From Desulfocapsaceae bacterium (GTDB lineage Bacteria > Desulfobacterota > Desulfobulbia > Desulfobulbales > Desulfocapsaceae): DNA of 57,067 nucleotides. The notes below the pieces were generated by a model. That model was given only the letters and a program-made list of their open reading frames with translations, ran no database searches and had not been told where the DNA came from. Position 1 is the stretch's first letter. Every line of letters begins with the position of its first letter. The stretch is from NCBI GenBank assembly GCA_030653035.1, contig JAUSAB010000093.1, positions 1 through 57,067 of the forward strand. The letters are read 5' to 3'. Made by a program: the position numbers and the translations under genes. This document shows positions 21,129 to 28,556 of the stretch, one piece after another.

Positions 21129-21250
21129 AAGAGTCAATATCTTTCCAAAAAACAAAGCCCTGTAAATTGTTAAAGGTGAAGGGATAACTCTCTTCACTTC
21201 ATCAAGCCTCATCACAAGCATGACCATAGATAGAAGGAAATTATACATTC

Positions 21251-22450
21251 ATGGGAGAAACACGATTCATAGTGGCGGGACGTCTTATCGACGGCAGCGG
21301 TGCCGATGTGCGCAAGAATGTCTTTCTGAAAGTTACGGACACCATTATTACCGCCATTGGCCCGGCCGCAGACCTTCCCCGCCATGACGGGGCGACAATC
21401 GATAACCTCTCGCACTGTGTCATATTACCGGCGCTGGTTGACTGCAGCGTTTCGCTTACGCGATCGCCCTCCGTAGACTGTCAGGTCCGGTTAGCCGCCG
21501 ATGAGGCCGACCTTGCGGAAAGGACAGCCATGGTGGAACGGCATATCAGCTACTGCCATGCATACGGAGTGCTGGGTGTGGCTGTCAGCGACGATCTCGC
21601 CGACCTGGGTGATCGTTCTCAAAAAGAGATGGCGCCGAGATGCATCCTTGATATTCGCACCTCCGGCGGTCTCTGCCGGAGCTTGCAGGAATGGGCCGCC
21701 GGCACCCCGGCAGGCGGTGATTTTCTTAAACTCGGTTATTCCTCCAATATCGAAGACGAGGAAGCCCCATATTCCCAGCTTACCTATGAAGAGCTGTGCC
21801 ATATTCTACAGCAGAGAGGCGGCAAAAAGGTGGTGGTGGTGGCCAATGGCCGGCAACAGGTAGCGGAGGCGCTGGCGGCGGGGTGCGATTCCATTGAACA
21901 GGGATACAGTATGGGCAAGGACAATCTCAGAAAAATGGCGGAGAATGATGTGTTGTGGATTCCCAGCGTCCTGCGGGCCAAGAATGGTTTGGACGGTGCA
22001 GGCGCAAGCGGAGATGTGTGTTGCCGTTTCTCCCAGCGCTATGTGGCACCCGGAAAGCCAAACCCCGGCGCAGAGGCCTTTTGGAAAAAGATGCTCGCCG
22101 AACAACTCGCGCAACTGCGTCTGGCCAGAGAATTGGGCGTGAAAACGGCGGTGGGAACCGGTGCCGGCAGTATTGGCATACTGCATGGCGAGTCGATGGC
22201 CGAGGAGATGAAATTGTTCATCAAGGCCGGTTATTCGCTGGAGGAGACCATCCGCTGCGCCTCGGCAAACGGCGCCCGATTCTTCGGCATGGAGCAGCTG
22301 GGAACGCTTACTGTCGGACGAAAGGCAACATTTCTGATTACCAGGGGCACGGTGCAACAGCTGCCAAGAAAACTCTCCTATCTCGAAGGCATCTATGTTG
22401 ATGGCGCTCCCAGCGTCACCTATCGTAAAAATCCGGTCAAGACGGTGTGA
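21251..22450 (+). CDS. Amidohydrolase-family protein lacking the metal-binding residues
   Basis: A 399-residue member of the imidazolonepropionase/prolidase-like amidohydrolases by overall layout: a small beta domain (RFIVAGRLIDGSGADVRKN), a TIM barrel, and a closing GTLTVGRKATFLI strand. However, the HxH of LPGLIDAHVHL reads LPALVDCSVSL; the two barrel histidines are replaced (VVVANG in place of VHAHG, IEQGY in place of IEHG); and the catalytic aspartate position reads GTGAG in place of GTDAG. Only the lysine in DFLKLG is kept. It is therefore probably not a metal-dependent hydrolase. The frame is intact over its full length, so it looks selected rather than decayed. Confidence 0.75.
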   Translation: MGETRFIVAGRLIDGSGADVRKNVFLKVTDTIITAIGPAADLPRHDGATIDNLSHCVILPALVDCSVSLTRSPSVDCQVRLAADEADLAERTAMVERHISYCHAYGVLGVAVSDDLADLGDRSQKEMAPRCILDIRTSGGLCRSLQEWAAGTPAGGDFLKLGYSSNIEDEEAPYSQLTYEELCHILQQRGGKKVVVVANGRQQVAEALAAGCDSIEQGYSMGKDNLRKMAENDVLWIPSVLRAKNGLDGAGASGDVCCRFSQRYVAPGKPNPGAEAFWKKMLAEQLAQLRLARELGVKTAVGTGAGSIGILHGESMAEEMKLFIKAGYSLEETIRCASANGARFFGMEQLGTLTVGRKATFLITRGTVQQLPRKLSYLEGIYVDGAPSVTYRKNPVKTV

Positions 22451-22603
22451 GGAGCGCTTTGCATCGCCTGCAAAAAACAACCGCAGGTCTTGGGCTTCTG
22501 GATCATGTCTCTCTCACTTTCGATGAAAATCGATCACTCATTCATAATCTGACCCCTGGTGTTGGTAACGGCCGCCACATTGCGGGCTGTATCATAGTCG
22601 TAA

Positions 22604-22662
22604 CCGGCCCTCTCCCAAAAGGAGAAGGGTGAAAGCTCCCTCTCCTTTTGGGAGAGGGCCGG
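22604..22662. repeat. Palindromic element D (long near-perfect inverted repeat)
   Basis: CCGGCCCTCTCCCAAAAGGA continuing to GAAGGG (22604-22629) is inverted at 22638-22662 around an 8-base loop, a known style of dispersed repeat in many proteobacteria. It may terminate the amidohydrolase transcript. The remainder of 22451-22788 holds no gene. Confidence 0.6.
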
Positions 22663-22788
22663 GGTGAGGGGAAAAATCTGGCAATGCAAGAGGTTATTGC
22701 AAAATTACTATTTCCAACTGCCGTTTCCGCGGATCACAATAATTTCGACATTTGTTACTACATCAAGATAGGCAATCGCCTTGAGAGG

Positions 22789-25242: not shown

Positions 25243-26478
25243 TCAAATCGTGGTCATTGCTCGCAACCTCTGCAAAAGCGGGGGATGGGAGTAGTGGAAA
25301 AACACATAGAGCGGGTGCGGGCTCAAATTGCTGAGATTGTTTACCGAAAGCTTTTTCAAGGCCGATCCCAGGGCCGCAGCGTTAAAATGGTCGGCGGCAA
25401 AACGGTCCGCCTCATACTCATTCTTGCGGGAGAAACTGTTCATGGCCAGCCCCATGATCGTGGAGAGCGGTGAGTAGAGCAGCGCAAAACTGATCAGGGC
25501 CAGATGGAAGCTGTGGATATCGGCGCCGAGGGCCGCAGACAGCACCGGGTTGGCAATAAACAACGATAAAATATAGAGCATGATGCCGGTCTGACAGAGG
25601 GCGGCGATAATCCCCTTGATCGTGTGCTTTTTCTTGTAATGGCCGATCTCATGGGCCAGTACCGCCACCAGTTCCTCCACCTCCAGGTCTTTAATCAGGG
25701 TATCATAGAGGACGATGCGCTTTTTGGCGCCCAGGCCTGCGAAATAGGCATTGGCCTTGGTGGAGCGGCGGGAGCCGTCAATGACAAAGACATTATCGAG
25801 CTGAAAACCGGACTTGGCGCTGAAGGCCTCGATGGCATCCCGCAGCCCACCCTGCTCCAGCGGTGTCTGCTTGTTAAAAAGGGGCACGATCAGGGTGGAG
25901 TAGAACATGGTCAGAAAGATCGTGAAGCCACTCATCAATAGCCAGGCATAGATCCAAAAATTACCCTGCGTCATCTGGTAAAACCAGATCACCGCCGAAA
26001 GCAGTGGCCCGCCCAGAAGGACGACGAGGAGCCAGCCCTTGAGTTTGTCGGTGATAAAGGTGAGCTTGGTGGTCTTGTTAAAGGCAAAGCGCTCCTCAAG
26101 GACAAAGGTGTGATAGAGGGTAAAAGGCAGAAAGAGAATTTCCGAACCCAAAAAAAGCAGGGCAAAGAAGAGCAGGGAGACCAGCAACTCCCCCTGCACC
26201 ATGCCCCGGACAAGCCGGTCGATAAAGGCAAAGCCGCCACCCATGAGCAGGGCCAGGAGGATCACAACCTGCAGGCTGGCGGTGACCAGCTCAAACCGGC
26301 AGTTGGCCCTCTTGTACTCCTGCGACCGTTGATACTTCTCCTCGCTGTAAATCCCCTTCACCTCATCAGGCAGTTGCGTGGAGATACTCCGGCAGTTAAG
26401 AAAGCTGAGCCCCCTTTCCAGGAGATAATCAGCAAGAACGATGGTGATAATGGCGGTAAGGATGGTTGTGGAATTCAT
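25243..26478 (-). CDS. M48 (Ste24/CAAX-protease type) membrane metalloprotease
   Basis: A 411-residue multi-pass membrane zinc protease. Hydrophobic segments occur near 4-20, 65-88, 98-122, 148-168, 175-200, 290-312 and 322-345. The zinc motif H276-E277-x-x-H280 is in VLAHEIGHYKKKH, and the third ligand is the glutamate of NEYEADRFA near 352. Layout and length match the Ste24 group. Bacterial members are thought to take part in membrane-protein quality control. The 5' end of the gene and its upstream flank are duplicated at 28095-28485. Confidence 0.88.
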   Translation of the reverse strand: MNSTTILTAIITIVLADYLLERGLSFLNCRSISTQLPDEVKGIYSEEKYQRSQEYKRANCRFELVTASLQVVILLALLMGGGFAFIDRLVRGMVQGELLVSLLFFALLFLGSEILFLPFTLYHTFVLEERFAFNKTTKLTFITDKLKGWLLVVLLGGPLLSAVIWFYQMTQGNFWIYAWLLMSGFTIFLTMFYSTLIVPLFNKQTPLEQGGLRDAIEAFSAKSGFQLDNVFVIDGSRRSTKANAYFAGLGAKKRIVLYDTLIKDLEVEELVAVLAHEIGHYKKKHTIKGIIAALCQTGIMLYILSLFIANPVLSAALGADIHSFHLALISFALLYSPLSTIMGLAMNSFSRKNEYEADRFAADHFNAAALGSALKKLSVNNLSNLSPHPLYVFFHYSHPPLLQRLRAMTTI

Positions 26479-26587
26479 GGGATTTTTTTATTAAATATCA
26501 GGTTGTTAGCGGGGCCTTACCCCTGTGTACTTCAAAGAATAAACTTAACATCTTGGCGGCCTGACTCCCAATTTTTCTTTGTTCGGG

Positions 26588-27994
26588 TTAAACAATACGA
26601 ACCTGCACTGTTTCTATAAATTTGCCACCTGCAAGAATATCTGAGAGCACTATCAAGCGGTCGCCTTCCTTTAAGAGTTCTTTGTGCTGCAGCTGCGTGA
26701 CAGCCCGAGCTATCGAGACTTCAGGATCATTGGAAAATTTGATGCGAAAGGCAGAAACGCCCCAATGAATACCAAGCCTACGCCGCACATGCGTTGTGTT
26801 GGTAAAAGCATAAATTGGCCCATTAGGCCGGCATTGTGAAAGCAGAACAGCCATTAAGCCGCGTCTTGTGAAAACCAGGGTGGCGGCAGCTTTCAGATTG
26901 TTGTTGAGTATTGATGCGCTTCTGGCAATTTCATGCTTTGCATTATCTGATGCCTGCACCATCACTTTCGTATCCTGTTCCATTTCTCTTTCTATCCTGC
27001 GGGCAATGACATCCATCACCTCCAAGGCCTTCAGTGGATGTTTGCCCGTTGCTGTTTCTCCAGACAGCATTATTGCATCAGTACCTTGAAGTACAGCTTG
27101 AGTAATGTCTGTCACTTCAGCTCTTGTCGGCGTTGGGTTAACAATCATAGATTCAAGCATATGCGTGGCCACGATTACCGTTTTTCCAGCAATACGGCAT
27201 TTTTTGATTATCTGTTCCTGAAGAAGTGGAACCTCTTCATAAGGCAACTCGGCTCCAAGGTCTCCTCTTGCTATCATAATTCCATCGCTTACTGCTATGA
27301 TTTCGTCAATGTGGGGAATTGCCTCAGCGCTTTCTATTTTTGCAATAATATCAATGGGCACATTTTTTTCAGTGATAAATTGCTGTAACTCTTCAATGGC
27401 AGGGGCTCCCTTAACAAAAGAGAGGGCAATGAAATCAACACCATTTTCAATGCCCAAAGCAATATCTTGCCAGTCTTTTTCTGTTATTGATGGCAGGTCT
27501 GCGCTTTTACCTCGAATATTAACGTGACGCCGAGAGCTCAGAACGCCATTATCAAGACACTCGCATCTGATATCTGTTTGCGTAATATTCATGACCTTGA
27601 GGCTAAGCATCCCTCCATCAATTAAGACTATATCGCCCAGAGCACCATCGGAAACAAAGCCATCATAGTTTATTTCAACACAGTAAGGTTCGAGCTCAGC
27701 CTGGCGCCTGATCGTCAGAGTTACAATCTCCCCTTTACGCAAGACAATATCACTCTTCACATCACCTGTTCGTACTTCAGGCCCCTTGGTGTCGAGAAGA
27801 ATGGCAACAGAAGAACCTGTTTGCTCATTAATGGTTTTAACGTGCTTAATTACCTCACTATGCCATTTATGTGTGCCATGGGACATGTTGAGACGGGCAA
27901 CATTCATTCCATTTTCAACAAGCTGTTTTAGAATCGTAAAATCTGAGGTCGCAGGGCCTATGGTGCACACTATTTTAGTTTTACGTGTAATCAT
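26588..27994 (-). CDS. pyk: Pyruvate kinase
   Basis: Converts PEP and ADP to pyruvate and ATP. The 468-residue product has RKTKIVCTIGPAT at the start, RLNMSHGTH near 34, LDTKGPEVRTG near 65, the catalytic-lysine signature IDIIAKIESAEAIPHIDEI near 213, MIARGDLGAELPYEEV near 240, VIVATHMLESMI near 268 and TRAEV...SGETATGKHP near 289-318. Length is normal for a bacterial type I/II enzyme without a PEP-utiliser domain. The gene lies exactly between two direct copies of the M48 5' region, which suggests it was placed here by recombination or was the spacer of a duplication. Confidence 0.95.
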   Translation of the reverse strand: MITRKTKIVCTIGPATSDFTILKQLVENGMNVARLNMSHGTHKWHSEVIKHVKTINEQTGSSVAILLDTKGPEVRTGDVKSDIVLRKGEIVTLTIRRQAELEPYCVEINYDGFVSDGALGDIVLIDGGMLSLKVMNITQTDIRCECLDNGVLSSRRHVNIRGKSADLPSITEKDWQDIALGIENGVDFIALSFVKGAPAIEELQQFITEKNVPIDIIAKIESAEAIPHIDEIIAVSDGIMIARGDLGAELPYEEVPLLQEQIIKKCRIAGKTVIVATHMLESMIVNPTPTRAEVTDITQAVLQGTDAIMLSGETATGKHPLKALEVMDVIARRIEREMEQDTKVMVQASDNAKHEIARSASILNNNLKAAATLVFTRRGLMAVLLSQCRPNGPIYAFTNTTHVRRRLGIHWGVSAFRIKFSNDPEVSIARAVTQLQHKELLKEGDRLIVLSDILAGGKFIETVQVRIV

Positions 27995-28379: not shown

Positions 28380-28492
28380 GGTGTGGTTTTATTCAATATC
28401 AGATTGGTAGCGGTGCCTAGCCCCGGGGGGAGGGGGGTACTTCAAAGAATAAACTTAGCATTTTGGAGGCATGTCCTCCAATTTTCCCCTAA

Positions 28493-28556
28493 CAGCTGCC
28501 AAGAAAACTCTCCTACATAGAAGGCATCTATGTTGAAGGCGCACCCGCCATTCCCA
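28493..28556 (+). pseudogene. Fragment of an amidohydrolase 3' end
   Basis: Reads QLPRKLSYIEGIYVEGAP, nearly the same as QLPRKLSYLEGIYVDGAP near the end of the amidohydrolase at 21251-22450, with about 40 of 48 bases identical by eye. The surrounding parts of the gene are missing. It abuts the stop codon of the unknown gene at 28559 on one side and the M48 relic on the other. Confidence 0.75.

What the first reader, a model, noticed from the sequence alone, without database searches (positions are those of the whole stretch)
21251..22450. Amidohydrolase that kept its frame but lost every metal ligand except the lysine
HxH reads SxS, the two barrel histidines read N and Q, and the catalytic aspartate reads G, while the reading frame is intact for 399 codons. 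Loss of the whole metal site with a preserved fold suggests a pseudoenzyme with a binding or regulatory role rather than decay.
Basis: partly seen in the sequence, partly recalled or inferred. Interest (0 to 1): 0.6.

Follow-up and report, generated by a model that had tools for sequence, protein, structure and literature searches.

The report
Order-wide metal-free amidohydrolase look-alike
A gene that looks like a zinc-dependent amide-cutting enzyme has lost its metal site, and relatives across one order of sulfur-cycling bacteria carry the same replacements and an added loop, so it is probably a maintained protein with a new job rather than a dying gene.

Summary
ORF 21251-22450 (+), 399 codons, is a prolidase/ochratoxinase-type amidohydrolase by sequence and predicted fold (Z 36.5 to 2qs8 and 3mtw). 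HxH reads S66-x-S68, the strand-6 His Q217, the strand-8 Asp G304. The lysine is not fixed: K 67, R 13, E 1 of 81. It is not decay. 109 of 257 genomes of the order carry this form. S66, Q217 and G304 are identical in 81 of 81 aligned copies. The metal-free rows form one clade, 100/100, 100/99 without the trait's own columns. dN/dS is about 0.25. The clade also lost an Arg (A111) and a strand 3-4 loop, and gained a loop with invariant C258-R259-F260-S261, absent from 41 of 41 metal-intact relatives. No gene neighbour is widely shared. Best reading: a metal-free ligand-binding pseudoenzyme, probably moved between families. Function is inferred; metal-free catalysis is not excluded.

The parts
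21251..22450 (+). Gene for the metal-free amidohydrolase-like protein (399 aa plus stop)
   Evidence: Pfam Amidohydro_1 2.7e-12; PDB matches; fold Z 36.5
21446..21454 (+). Codons S66-x-S68, in place of the HxH metal motif
   Evidence: S66 in 81 of 81, S68 in 69 of 81 copies; H in 40 of 41 and 41 of 41 metal-intact relatives
21581..21583 (+). Codon A111, in place of an Arg fixed in the metal-intact relatives
   Evidence: A in 80 of 81 copies, R in 41 of 41 metal-intact relatives
21728..21730 (+). Codon K160, position of the bridging carboxylated lysine; K, R or E in the clade
   Evidence: K 67, R 13, E 1 of 81
21839..21841 (+). Codon V197, in place of the strand-5 metal His
   Evidence: H in 41 of 41 metal-intact relatives, none of 80 readable copies; spacing of 20 to Q217 as His287-His307 in ochratoxinase
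21845..21847 (+). Codon N199, kept from the metal-intact relatives; position of His289 of ochratoxinase by spacing
   Evidence: N in 80 of 80 readable copies and 41 of 41 metal-intact relatives; for His289
21899..21901 (+). Codon Q217, in place of the strand-6 metal His
   Evidence: Q in 81 of 81, H in 41 of 41 metal-intact relatives
22010..22066 (+). Inserted loop, about residues 254-272, with invariant C258-R259-F260-S261 and R263-Y264
   Evidence: invariant in the 81-row alignment; gap in 41 of 41 metal-intact relatives and in L028 and L172; low confidence in the model
22160..22162 (+). Codon G304, in place of the strand-8 Asp
   Evidence: G in 81 of 81, D in 41 of 41 metal-intact relatives
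21194..21250 (+). 5' flank conserved in part of the relatives, with the ribosome-binding block next to ATG
   Evidence: upB block in 20 of 79 loci against 0 in shuffled controls, ribosome-binding block 43 of 79 against 3; window matches upB with 6 mismatches at -57
22450..22474 (+). 3' flank element (TTTGCA...TGCAAA) conserved in part of the relatives
   Evidence: 21 of 81 loci against 0 in shuffled controls
28491..28546 (+). 56-base remnant of the gene's 3' end (about codons 369-388), 91% identical

Best explanation
The gene encodes a metal-free pseudoenzyme of the amidohydrolase superfamily (prolidase/carboxypeptidase/ochratoxinase branch) that arose once in Desulfobulbales from a metal-intact relative. 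Shown by sequence: the five His/Asp ligands are replaced, the bridging Lys is free to vary, an Arg and a strand 3-4 loop are gone, a Cys-Arg loop has been added, and Asn199 stays fixed. Inferred: the barrel still binds a small ligand in the old pocket, probably one with a carboxylate such as an N-acyl amino acid or small peptide; without metal it does not hydrolyse it; the added loop (C258-R259-F260-S261...R263-Y264) closes over the mouth and passes binding on to a partner or a redox signal. It probably acts on its own, not as a fixed subunit of its metal-intact sister, because most carriers showed no full sister gene. It has probably also spread between families of the order as a single gene.
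For: Fixed replacements in 81 of 81 copies at S66, Q217, G304. The 34 metal-free rows are one clade, 100/100 (67 rows) and 100/99 after removal of the ligand, switched, insertion and strand 3-4 loop columns. 109 of 257 genomes of the order have it at E <= 1e-120. dN/dS median 0.248 within the genus, 66 pairs. Fold: Z 36.5, 365 residues, rmsd 3.5 to 2qs8; Z 36.5 to 3mtw. Switched residues and new loop. D64, N199, G200, E216 and G218 are identical in both groups. 16 of the 109 carriers are among the 51 genomes with a metal-intact copy of 475 bits or more (my own cross-count of the printed rows). Two early-branching copies (L028, L172) lack the metal site and the strand 3-4 loop and do not have the new loop. 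Synonymous divergence equals lysC within the genus (median pS 0.27 and 0.28; lower in 30 of 66 pairs) but is lower in 129 of 132 pairs across the genus border (0.55 against 0.73) and in 49 of 55 pairs outside it, which fits transfer between families.
Against: No ligand, partner, expression or activity data. dN/dS is higher than that of lysC (0.248 against 0.066), so constraint is weaker than on a housekeeping gene. The new loop is predicted with low confidence (block pLDDT 42-52). No neighbour hints at a pathway. The clade's stem is long (0.9) and its exact place among the metal-intact rows is weakly supported (88/75). The gene tree does not reject the genus as one clade (AU p 0.116), so transfer rests on synonymous divergence. 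Replacements are not perfect outside the 81: L028 reads A at 304, and one of the 81 has H at position 68. One copy, in a 2-contig genome (G447, L174), is split between two reading frames, so loss occurs in places.
Confidence: 0.6

Rival explanations
1. It is still an enzyme, with a new metal-independent chemistry. The invariant Cys258-Arg259 of the inserted loop, with S66, N199, Q217 and the retained H312-x-E314, would form a new active site in the old barrel.
For: C258, R259, F260, S261, R263, Y264, S66, Q217, H312 and E314 are invariant in the 81-row alignment, as expected for a catalytic site; the loop is absent from 41 of 41 metal-intact relatives.
Against: H312 and E314 are shared with most metal-intact relatives (40 and 36 of 41), so they are not new; two early-branching copies (L028, L172) lack the loop although their metal site is gone; the loop is not predicted with confidence.
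Confidence: 0.22
2. The gene is mainly a mobile passenger: a single-gene unit that spreads between Desulfobulbales, with little benefit to the host.
For: No widely shared neighbours, low synonymous divergence across families, flanking blocks conserved in part of the loci, extra fragments in several genomes and in this window.
Against: Pairwise dN/dS about 0.25 and invariant pocket residues need selection on the protein. No moving element was identified, but transposases and integrases were not searched for by family.
Confidence: 0.1
3. Plain decay of an amidohydrolase gene.
For: The metal site is gone; one copy (L174) is split between frames and fragments exist.
Against: 109 of 257 genomes, the same replacement residues in 81 of 81 aligned copies, dN/dS well under 1.
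Confidence: 0.03
4. It is a regulatory or structural subunit of the metal-intact sister enzyme, as pseudo-dihydroorotase is for aspartate transcarbamoylase (recalled).
For: 16 of 51 genomes with a metal-intact copy of 475 bits or more also have it (my cross-count).
Against: 93 of 109 carriers are not among those 51, though some genomes are incomplete and shorter sister fragments were not counted; where both occur in the printed rows they lie at different places.
Confidence: 0.05

Closest known systems
Metal-intact Desulfobacterota clade of this family (L131-L159 and others; no name found in Pfam or NCBIfam beyond 'amidohydrolase')
   Same: Shared HANG/VANG, IE(H/Q)G, HGE and PRKLSYLE-like stretches; 32-40% identity to the window protein
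   Different: Has HxH, K, H, H, D and the Arg, plus the strand 3-4 loop GRYGxLIGR; lacks the Cys-Arg loop
Prolidase and L-Arg/L-Lys carboxypeptidase type amidohydrolases (PDB 2qs8, 3mtw Cc2672, 3be7, 3feq) and ochratoxinases (4c5y, ADH3 8ihq)
   Same: Predicted fold, Z 33.9 to 36.5; best sequence matches in the PDB
   Different: Ochratoxinase carries the two-metal site, the others by recall; this protein has none of its His or Asp ligands
Molinate hydrolase (4wgx, 4ub9)
   Same: Same superfamily; partial erosion of the metal site: one alpha-site His is Asn and the Lys is not carboxylated (passages of PMC4407906)
   Different: Keeps the strand 5 and 6 His pair and one metal, and is active
Other amidohydrolase pseudoenzymes: defective dihydroorotase-like domain of yeast URA2, CRMPs (mostly recalled)
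   Same: Kept fold, lost metal site, new non-catalytic role (recalled)
   Different: Other branches of the superfamily; only a reference title on URA2 was seen, CRMPs are recalled

Membership tests
Amidohydrolase superfamily (fold) | Distorted (beta/alpha)8 barrel with the N- and C-terminal beta-sandwich | tested here: met
   Pfam Amidohydro_1 above its cut-off, 47 against 25 bits; predicted model aligned to 2qs8 over 365 residues, Z 36.5. Model only, no solved structure.
Amidohydrolase superfamily (catalytic metal site) | HxH, Lys or Glu, His, His, Asp metal ligands | tested here: not met
   S66, S68, K160, V197, Q217, G304; spacing fits but residues do not (motif)
NCBIfam NF051886 Xaa-Pro dipeptidase | Score above the curated cut-off | tested here: not met
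   63.5 bits against 500
   18.3 bits against 298.15; the fold is similar, Z about 30, but less so than the prolidase type
Pseudoenzyme (as a kind) | Homology to enzymes, loss of catalytic residues, conservation of the lost state | tested here: met
Pseudoenzyme (as a kind) | Absence of catalytic activity and presence of a non-catalytic role | not testable with these tools
   needs purified protein and genetics

The most novel reading that the evidence does not exclude
A barrel of the amidohydrolase superfamily has been rebuilt into a metal-free active site or redox-sensing receptor around a clade-specific Cys-Arg loop, in two steps (metal loss first, loop gain later), and this new protein has spread between families of one bacterial order.
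Probability: 0.25. Interest if true: 0.7.

Novelty: new variant of a known kind. Interest (0 to 1): 0.47.

Why it matters
Family models call these proteins amidohydrolases, yet they lack every His and Asp ligand of the metal site. The clade gives a natural series (metal-intact; metal lost without the loop; metal lost with the loop) in which the steps from enzyme to pseudoenzyme can be tested, and it is a widespread protein of unknown function in sulfur-cycling bacteria.

Tried and rejected
Metal ligands elsewhere in the barrel: rejected on motif order and spacing. A new metal site from other invariant residues was not tested, since model coordinates are not returned.

Decay of this gene alone: rejected. 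In one search, 12 printed rows flag one stop inside the match; in 12 of 12 the listed open frame is at least as long as the match (my arithmetic), so the stop lies at an end. Short rows: G351, G387 and G461 begin 8-23 bases from a contig start and G538:C50 ends 11 bases from its contig end; G447 (L174) is split between two frames.

Operon partner: none found. Apart from ORFs inside or overlapping the gene, clusters near it reach at most 16 of 81 loci (mechanical ORFs; only 49 of 81 loci hold 2 kb or more on both sides). lysC and cimA clusters cover 11 of 81 each. In 10 regions around metal-intact copies (anchor found in 8) no neighbour cluster covers more than 3; 10 ORFs there gave unrelated Pfam families.

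Selection on the DNA itself: synonymous conservation is spread fairly evenly along the gene (ratio 1.4-2.2 per 20-codon block) and synonymous divergence equals lysC within the genus. At equal protein identity the clade has lower synonymous divergence than metal-intact relatives (0.46, 707 pairs, against 0.69, 15 pairs, at 70-75%), which fits weaker protein constraint and later spread. A long antisense frame was judged chance by reasoning, not by a test.

Gene-tree proof of transfer: the protein tree is poorly resolved; holding the genus together is not rejected (p 0.116).

Mobile-element ends: a 3' flank motif tried in the own genome found nothing. Rfam gave 4 matches, 4 of 4 below their gathering scores. 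The promoter/terminator scan was within its shuffles.

Papers: searches listed no title on this clade (one search showed 15 of 24); the library holds open-licence papers only.

Selection of rows: one search uses the best 80 of 125 loci found through two peptide patterns, one of which contains Q217, so that count is partly built in. Without that filter, 29 of 29 metal-free rows (protein search, same organisms in part) read S66 and Q217, and 28 of 29 read G304 (L028 has A). One search left out duplicates (L001, L011, L015), L045 and hits under 250 residues. Searches used 67 rows chosen by hand, 26 of them from the 80 named loci. One search uses 23 of the 27 genomes searched (4 without a lysC match).

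Full report
What is there. The ORF at 21251-22450 on the plus strand is open for 399 codons. Pfam places it in Amidohydro_1 (2.7e-12, 47 bits against a cut-off of 25) and the nearest solved relatives are prolidase, arginine-carboxypeptidase and ochratoxinase-type enzymes. A predicted model from 50 sequences has mean pLDDT 76.7 and pTM 0.83. It aligns to 2qs8 (Z 36.5, rmsd 3.5, 365 residues) and 3mtw (Z 36.5), ahead of imidazolonepropionases (Z about 30). So the fold call is sound for a model, and the closest type is prolidase-like, not imidazolonepropionase.

The metal site. HxH reads S66-x-S68, the bridging Lys is K160, the strand-6 His is Q217 and the strand-8 Asp is G304. The strand-5 His position is V197, not N199: metal-intact relatives read H at 197 and N at 199, 41 of 41 each. 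In A. niger ochratoxinase the ligands are His111, His113, Asp378, His287, His307 and carboxylated Lys246, while His289 is described near the substrate carboxylate (passages of PMC11342369). The spacings fit the superfamily motif given in PMC4407906 (passages). The Arg that is fixed in 41 of 41 metal-intact relatives is A111.

It is a clade, not an accident. Among 80 named loci plus the window, S66, Q217 and G304 are the same in 81 of 81, N199 in 80 of 80 readable, and the Lys is K 67, R 13, E 1. One of the two peptide patterns that fetched these loci contains Q217, so that count is partly built in; among rows from the protein search, 29 of 29 metal-free rows read S66 and Q217 and 28 of 29 G304. 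In a tree of 67 rows the 34 metal-free rows form one clade (100/100); the metal-intact rows do not. With the ligand, switched, insertion and strand 3-4 loop columns taken out the clade stays at 100/99 (bootstrap not fully settled). The split of the order's own sequences, both kinds, from metal-intact rows of other orders has 92/95, while the exact sister of the clade is weakly supported (88/75), and the stem is long. At E <= 1e-120, 109 of 257 genomes of the order carry it, 69 of 148 of those at least 90% complete and at most 5% contaminated. Of 297 genomes spread over the phylum, 5 matched at 1e-60, the window's own among them, all in the same order. The order is Desulfobulbales by the names of the fetched loci: by my count 45 of 80 bear names of that order, most others are unplaced Proteobacteria or Deltaproteobacteria, and the cultured ones are Desulfobulbus alkaliphilus, Desulfogranum marinum and Desulfosediminicola flagellatus (lineage of the order). 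One short contig is labelled Planctomycetota (L069), which may be misbinned.

What changed besides the metals. Comparing 81 metal-free with 41 metal-intact sequences, switched positions include S66, A111, A214, Q217, G304, I237, A243, N245 and F344. A loop of about 16-20 residues after strand 6 (GDVCCRFSQRYVAPGKP in the window) is new, and C258, R259, F260, S261, R263 and Y264 in it are invariant. A strand 3-4 loop with GRYGxLIGR is gone. Two early-branching copies (L028, L172) lack the metal site and that loop but also lack the new loop, which suggests that metal loss came first; the order of those two branches is weakly supported (88/21). D64, N199, G200, E216 and G218 are the same in both groups, so part of the old pocket is kept.

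Selection and movement. Within the window's genus dN/dS is 0.248 (median of 66 pairs), against 0.066 for lysC: constrained, but less than a housekeeping gene. Synonymous divergence equals that of lysC within the genus (0.27 and 0.28; lower in 30 of 66 pairs) and is far lower across the genus border (0.55 and 0.73; lower in 129 of 132 pairs) and outside it (0.61 and 0.76; lower in 49 of 55). Constraint on synonymous sites should lower all; transfer between families lowers only the distant ones. The gene tree alone does not prove transfer (AU p 0.116). For the window's own genome the neighbours lysC and cimA are unusually diverged, so the genus medians are the fairer comparison. The gene has no widely shared neighbours (flanks often short); short blocks on both sides are conserved in part of the loci; partial extra copies occur in G006, G013, L071 and in this window at 28491-28546. 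One copy in a 2-contig genome is split between frames.

Relation to the metal-intact sister. Of 51 genomes with a metal-intact copy of 475 bits or more, 16 also hold the metal-free form (cross-counted by me from the printed rows). So 93 of 109 carriers are not among those 51, and a fixed partnership is unlikely, allowing for incomplete genomes and uncounted fragments.

Reading. The best-supported account is a pseudoenzyme: fold and part of the pocket kept, metal chemistry lost once and no full site regained in the sample, replacement residues under selection, and a new loop with an invariant Cys-Arg pair. That it binds a carboxylate-bearing small molecule, and that the loop relays binding or redox state, is inference from the kept Asn and from ochratoxinase. 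A metal-independent enzyme is the main rival. Literature searches listed no title on this clade in the open-licence library; pseudoenzymes in other branches of the superfamily are known mostly from recall here (one search showed only a reference title on yeast URA2).

Noticed in passing
window 28491-28546 (+): A 91% identical 56-base remnant of the gene's 3' end lies 6 kb downstream, beyond a metallophosphoesterase-like gene (Pfam match below cut-off) and genes that look like an M48 peptidase and a pyruvate kinase (by eye); the only other match in the held assembly.
   Followed up: partly
L055 / G006:C120; L044 / G013:C17; L071: Partial extra copies of the gene, mostly its 3' part, on the same contig as the full copy; G013 also has a second full-length match on another contig.
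   Followed up: partly
window 25243-27994: The M48 peptidase-like and pyruvate kinase-like genes have lower dS to relatives (0.13-0.37) than lysC and cimA in the same window (0.47-1.22), though the sets of relatives differ in part; recombination or a foreign lysC-cimA segment could explain it.
   Followed up: no
window 22603-22663: An imperfect inverted repeat (about 87% over 60 bases; CCCTCTCC...GGGAGAGGG) of a kind often dispersed in proteobacterial genomes (recalled); matched only by sub-threshold miRNA models.
   Followed up: no
L174 (G447:C1): A copy of the metal-free gene split between two reading frames in a genome that also has a metal-intact relative.
   Followed up: partly
L036 (G025:C147): A member of the metal-intact group in which the first His of HxH is Cys, perhaps another start of metal-site loss.
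   Followed up: no
L186, L189-L193: Shorter amidohydrolase relatives (frames of 311-351 aa) in other lineages of the phylum whose matches begin at about residues 53-59 of the metal-intact protein, as if the N-terminal sandwich part were missing or different.
   Followed up: no
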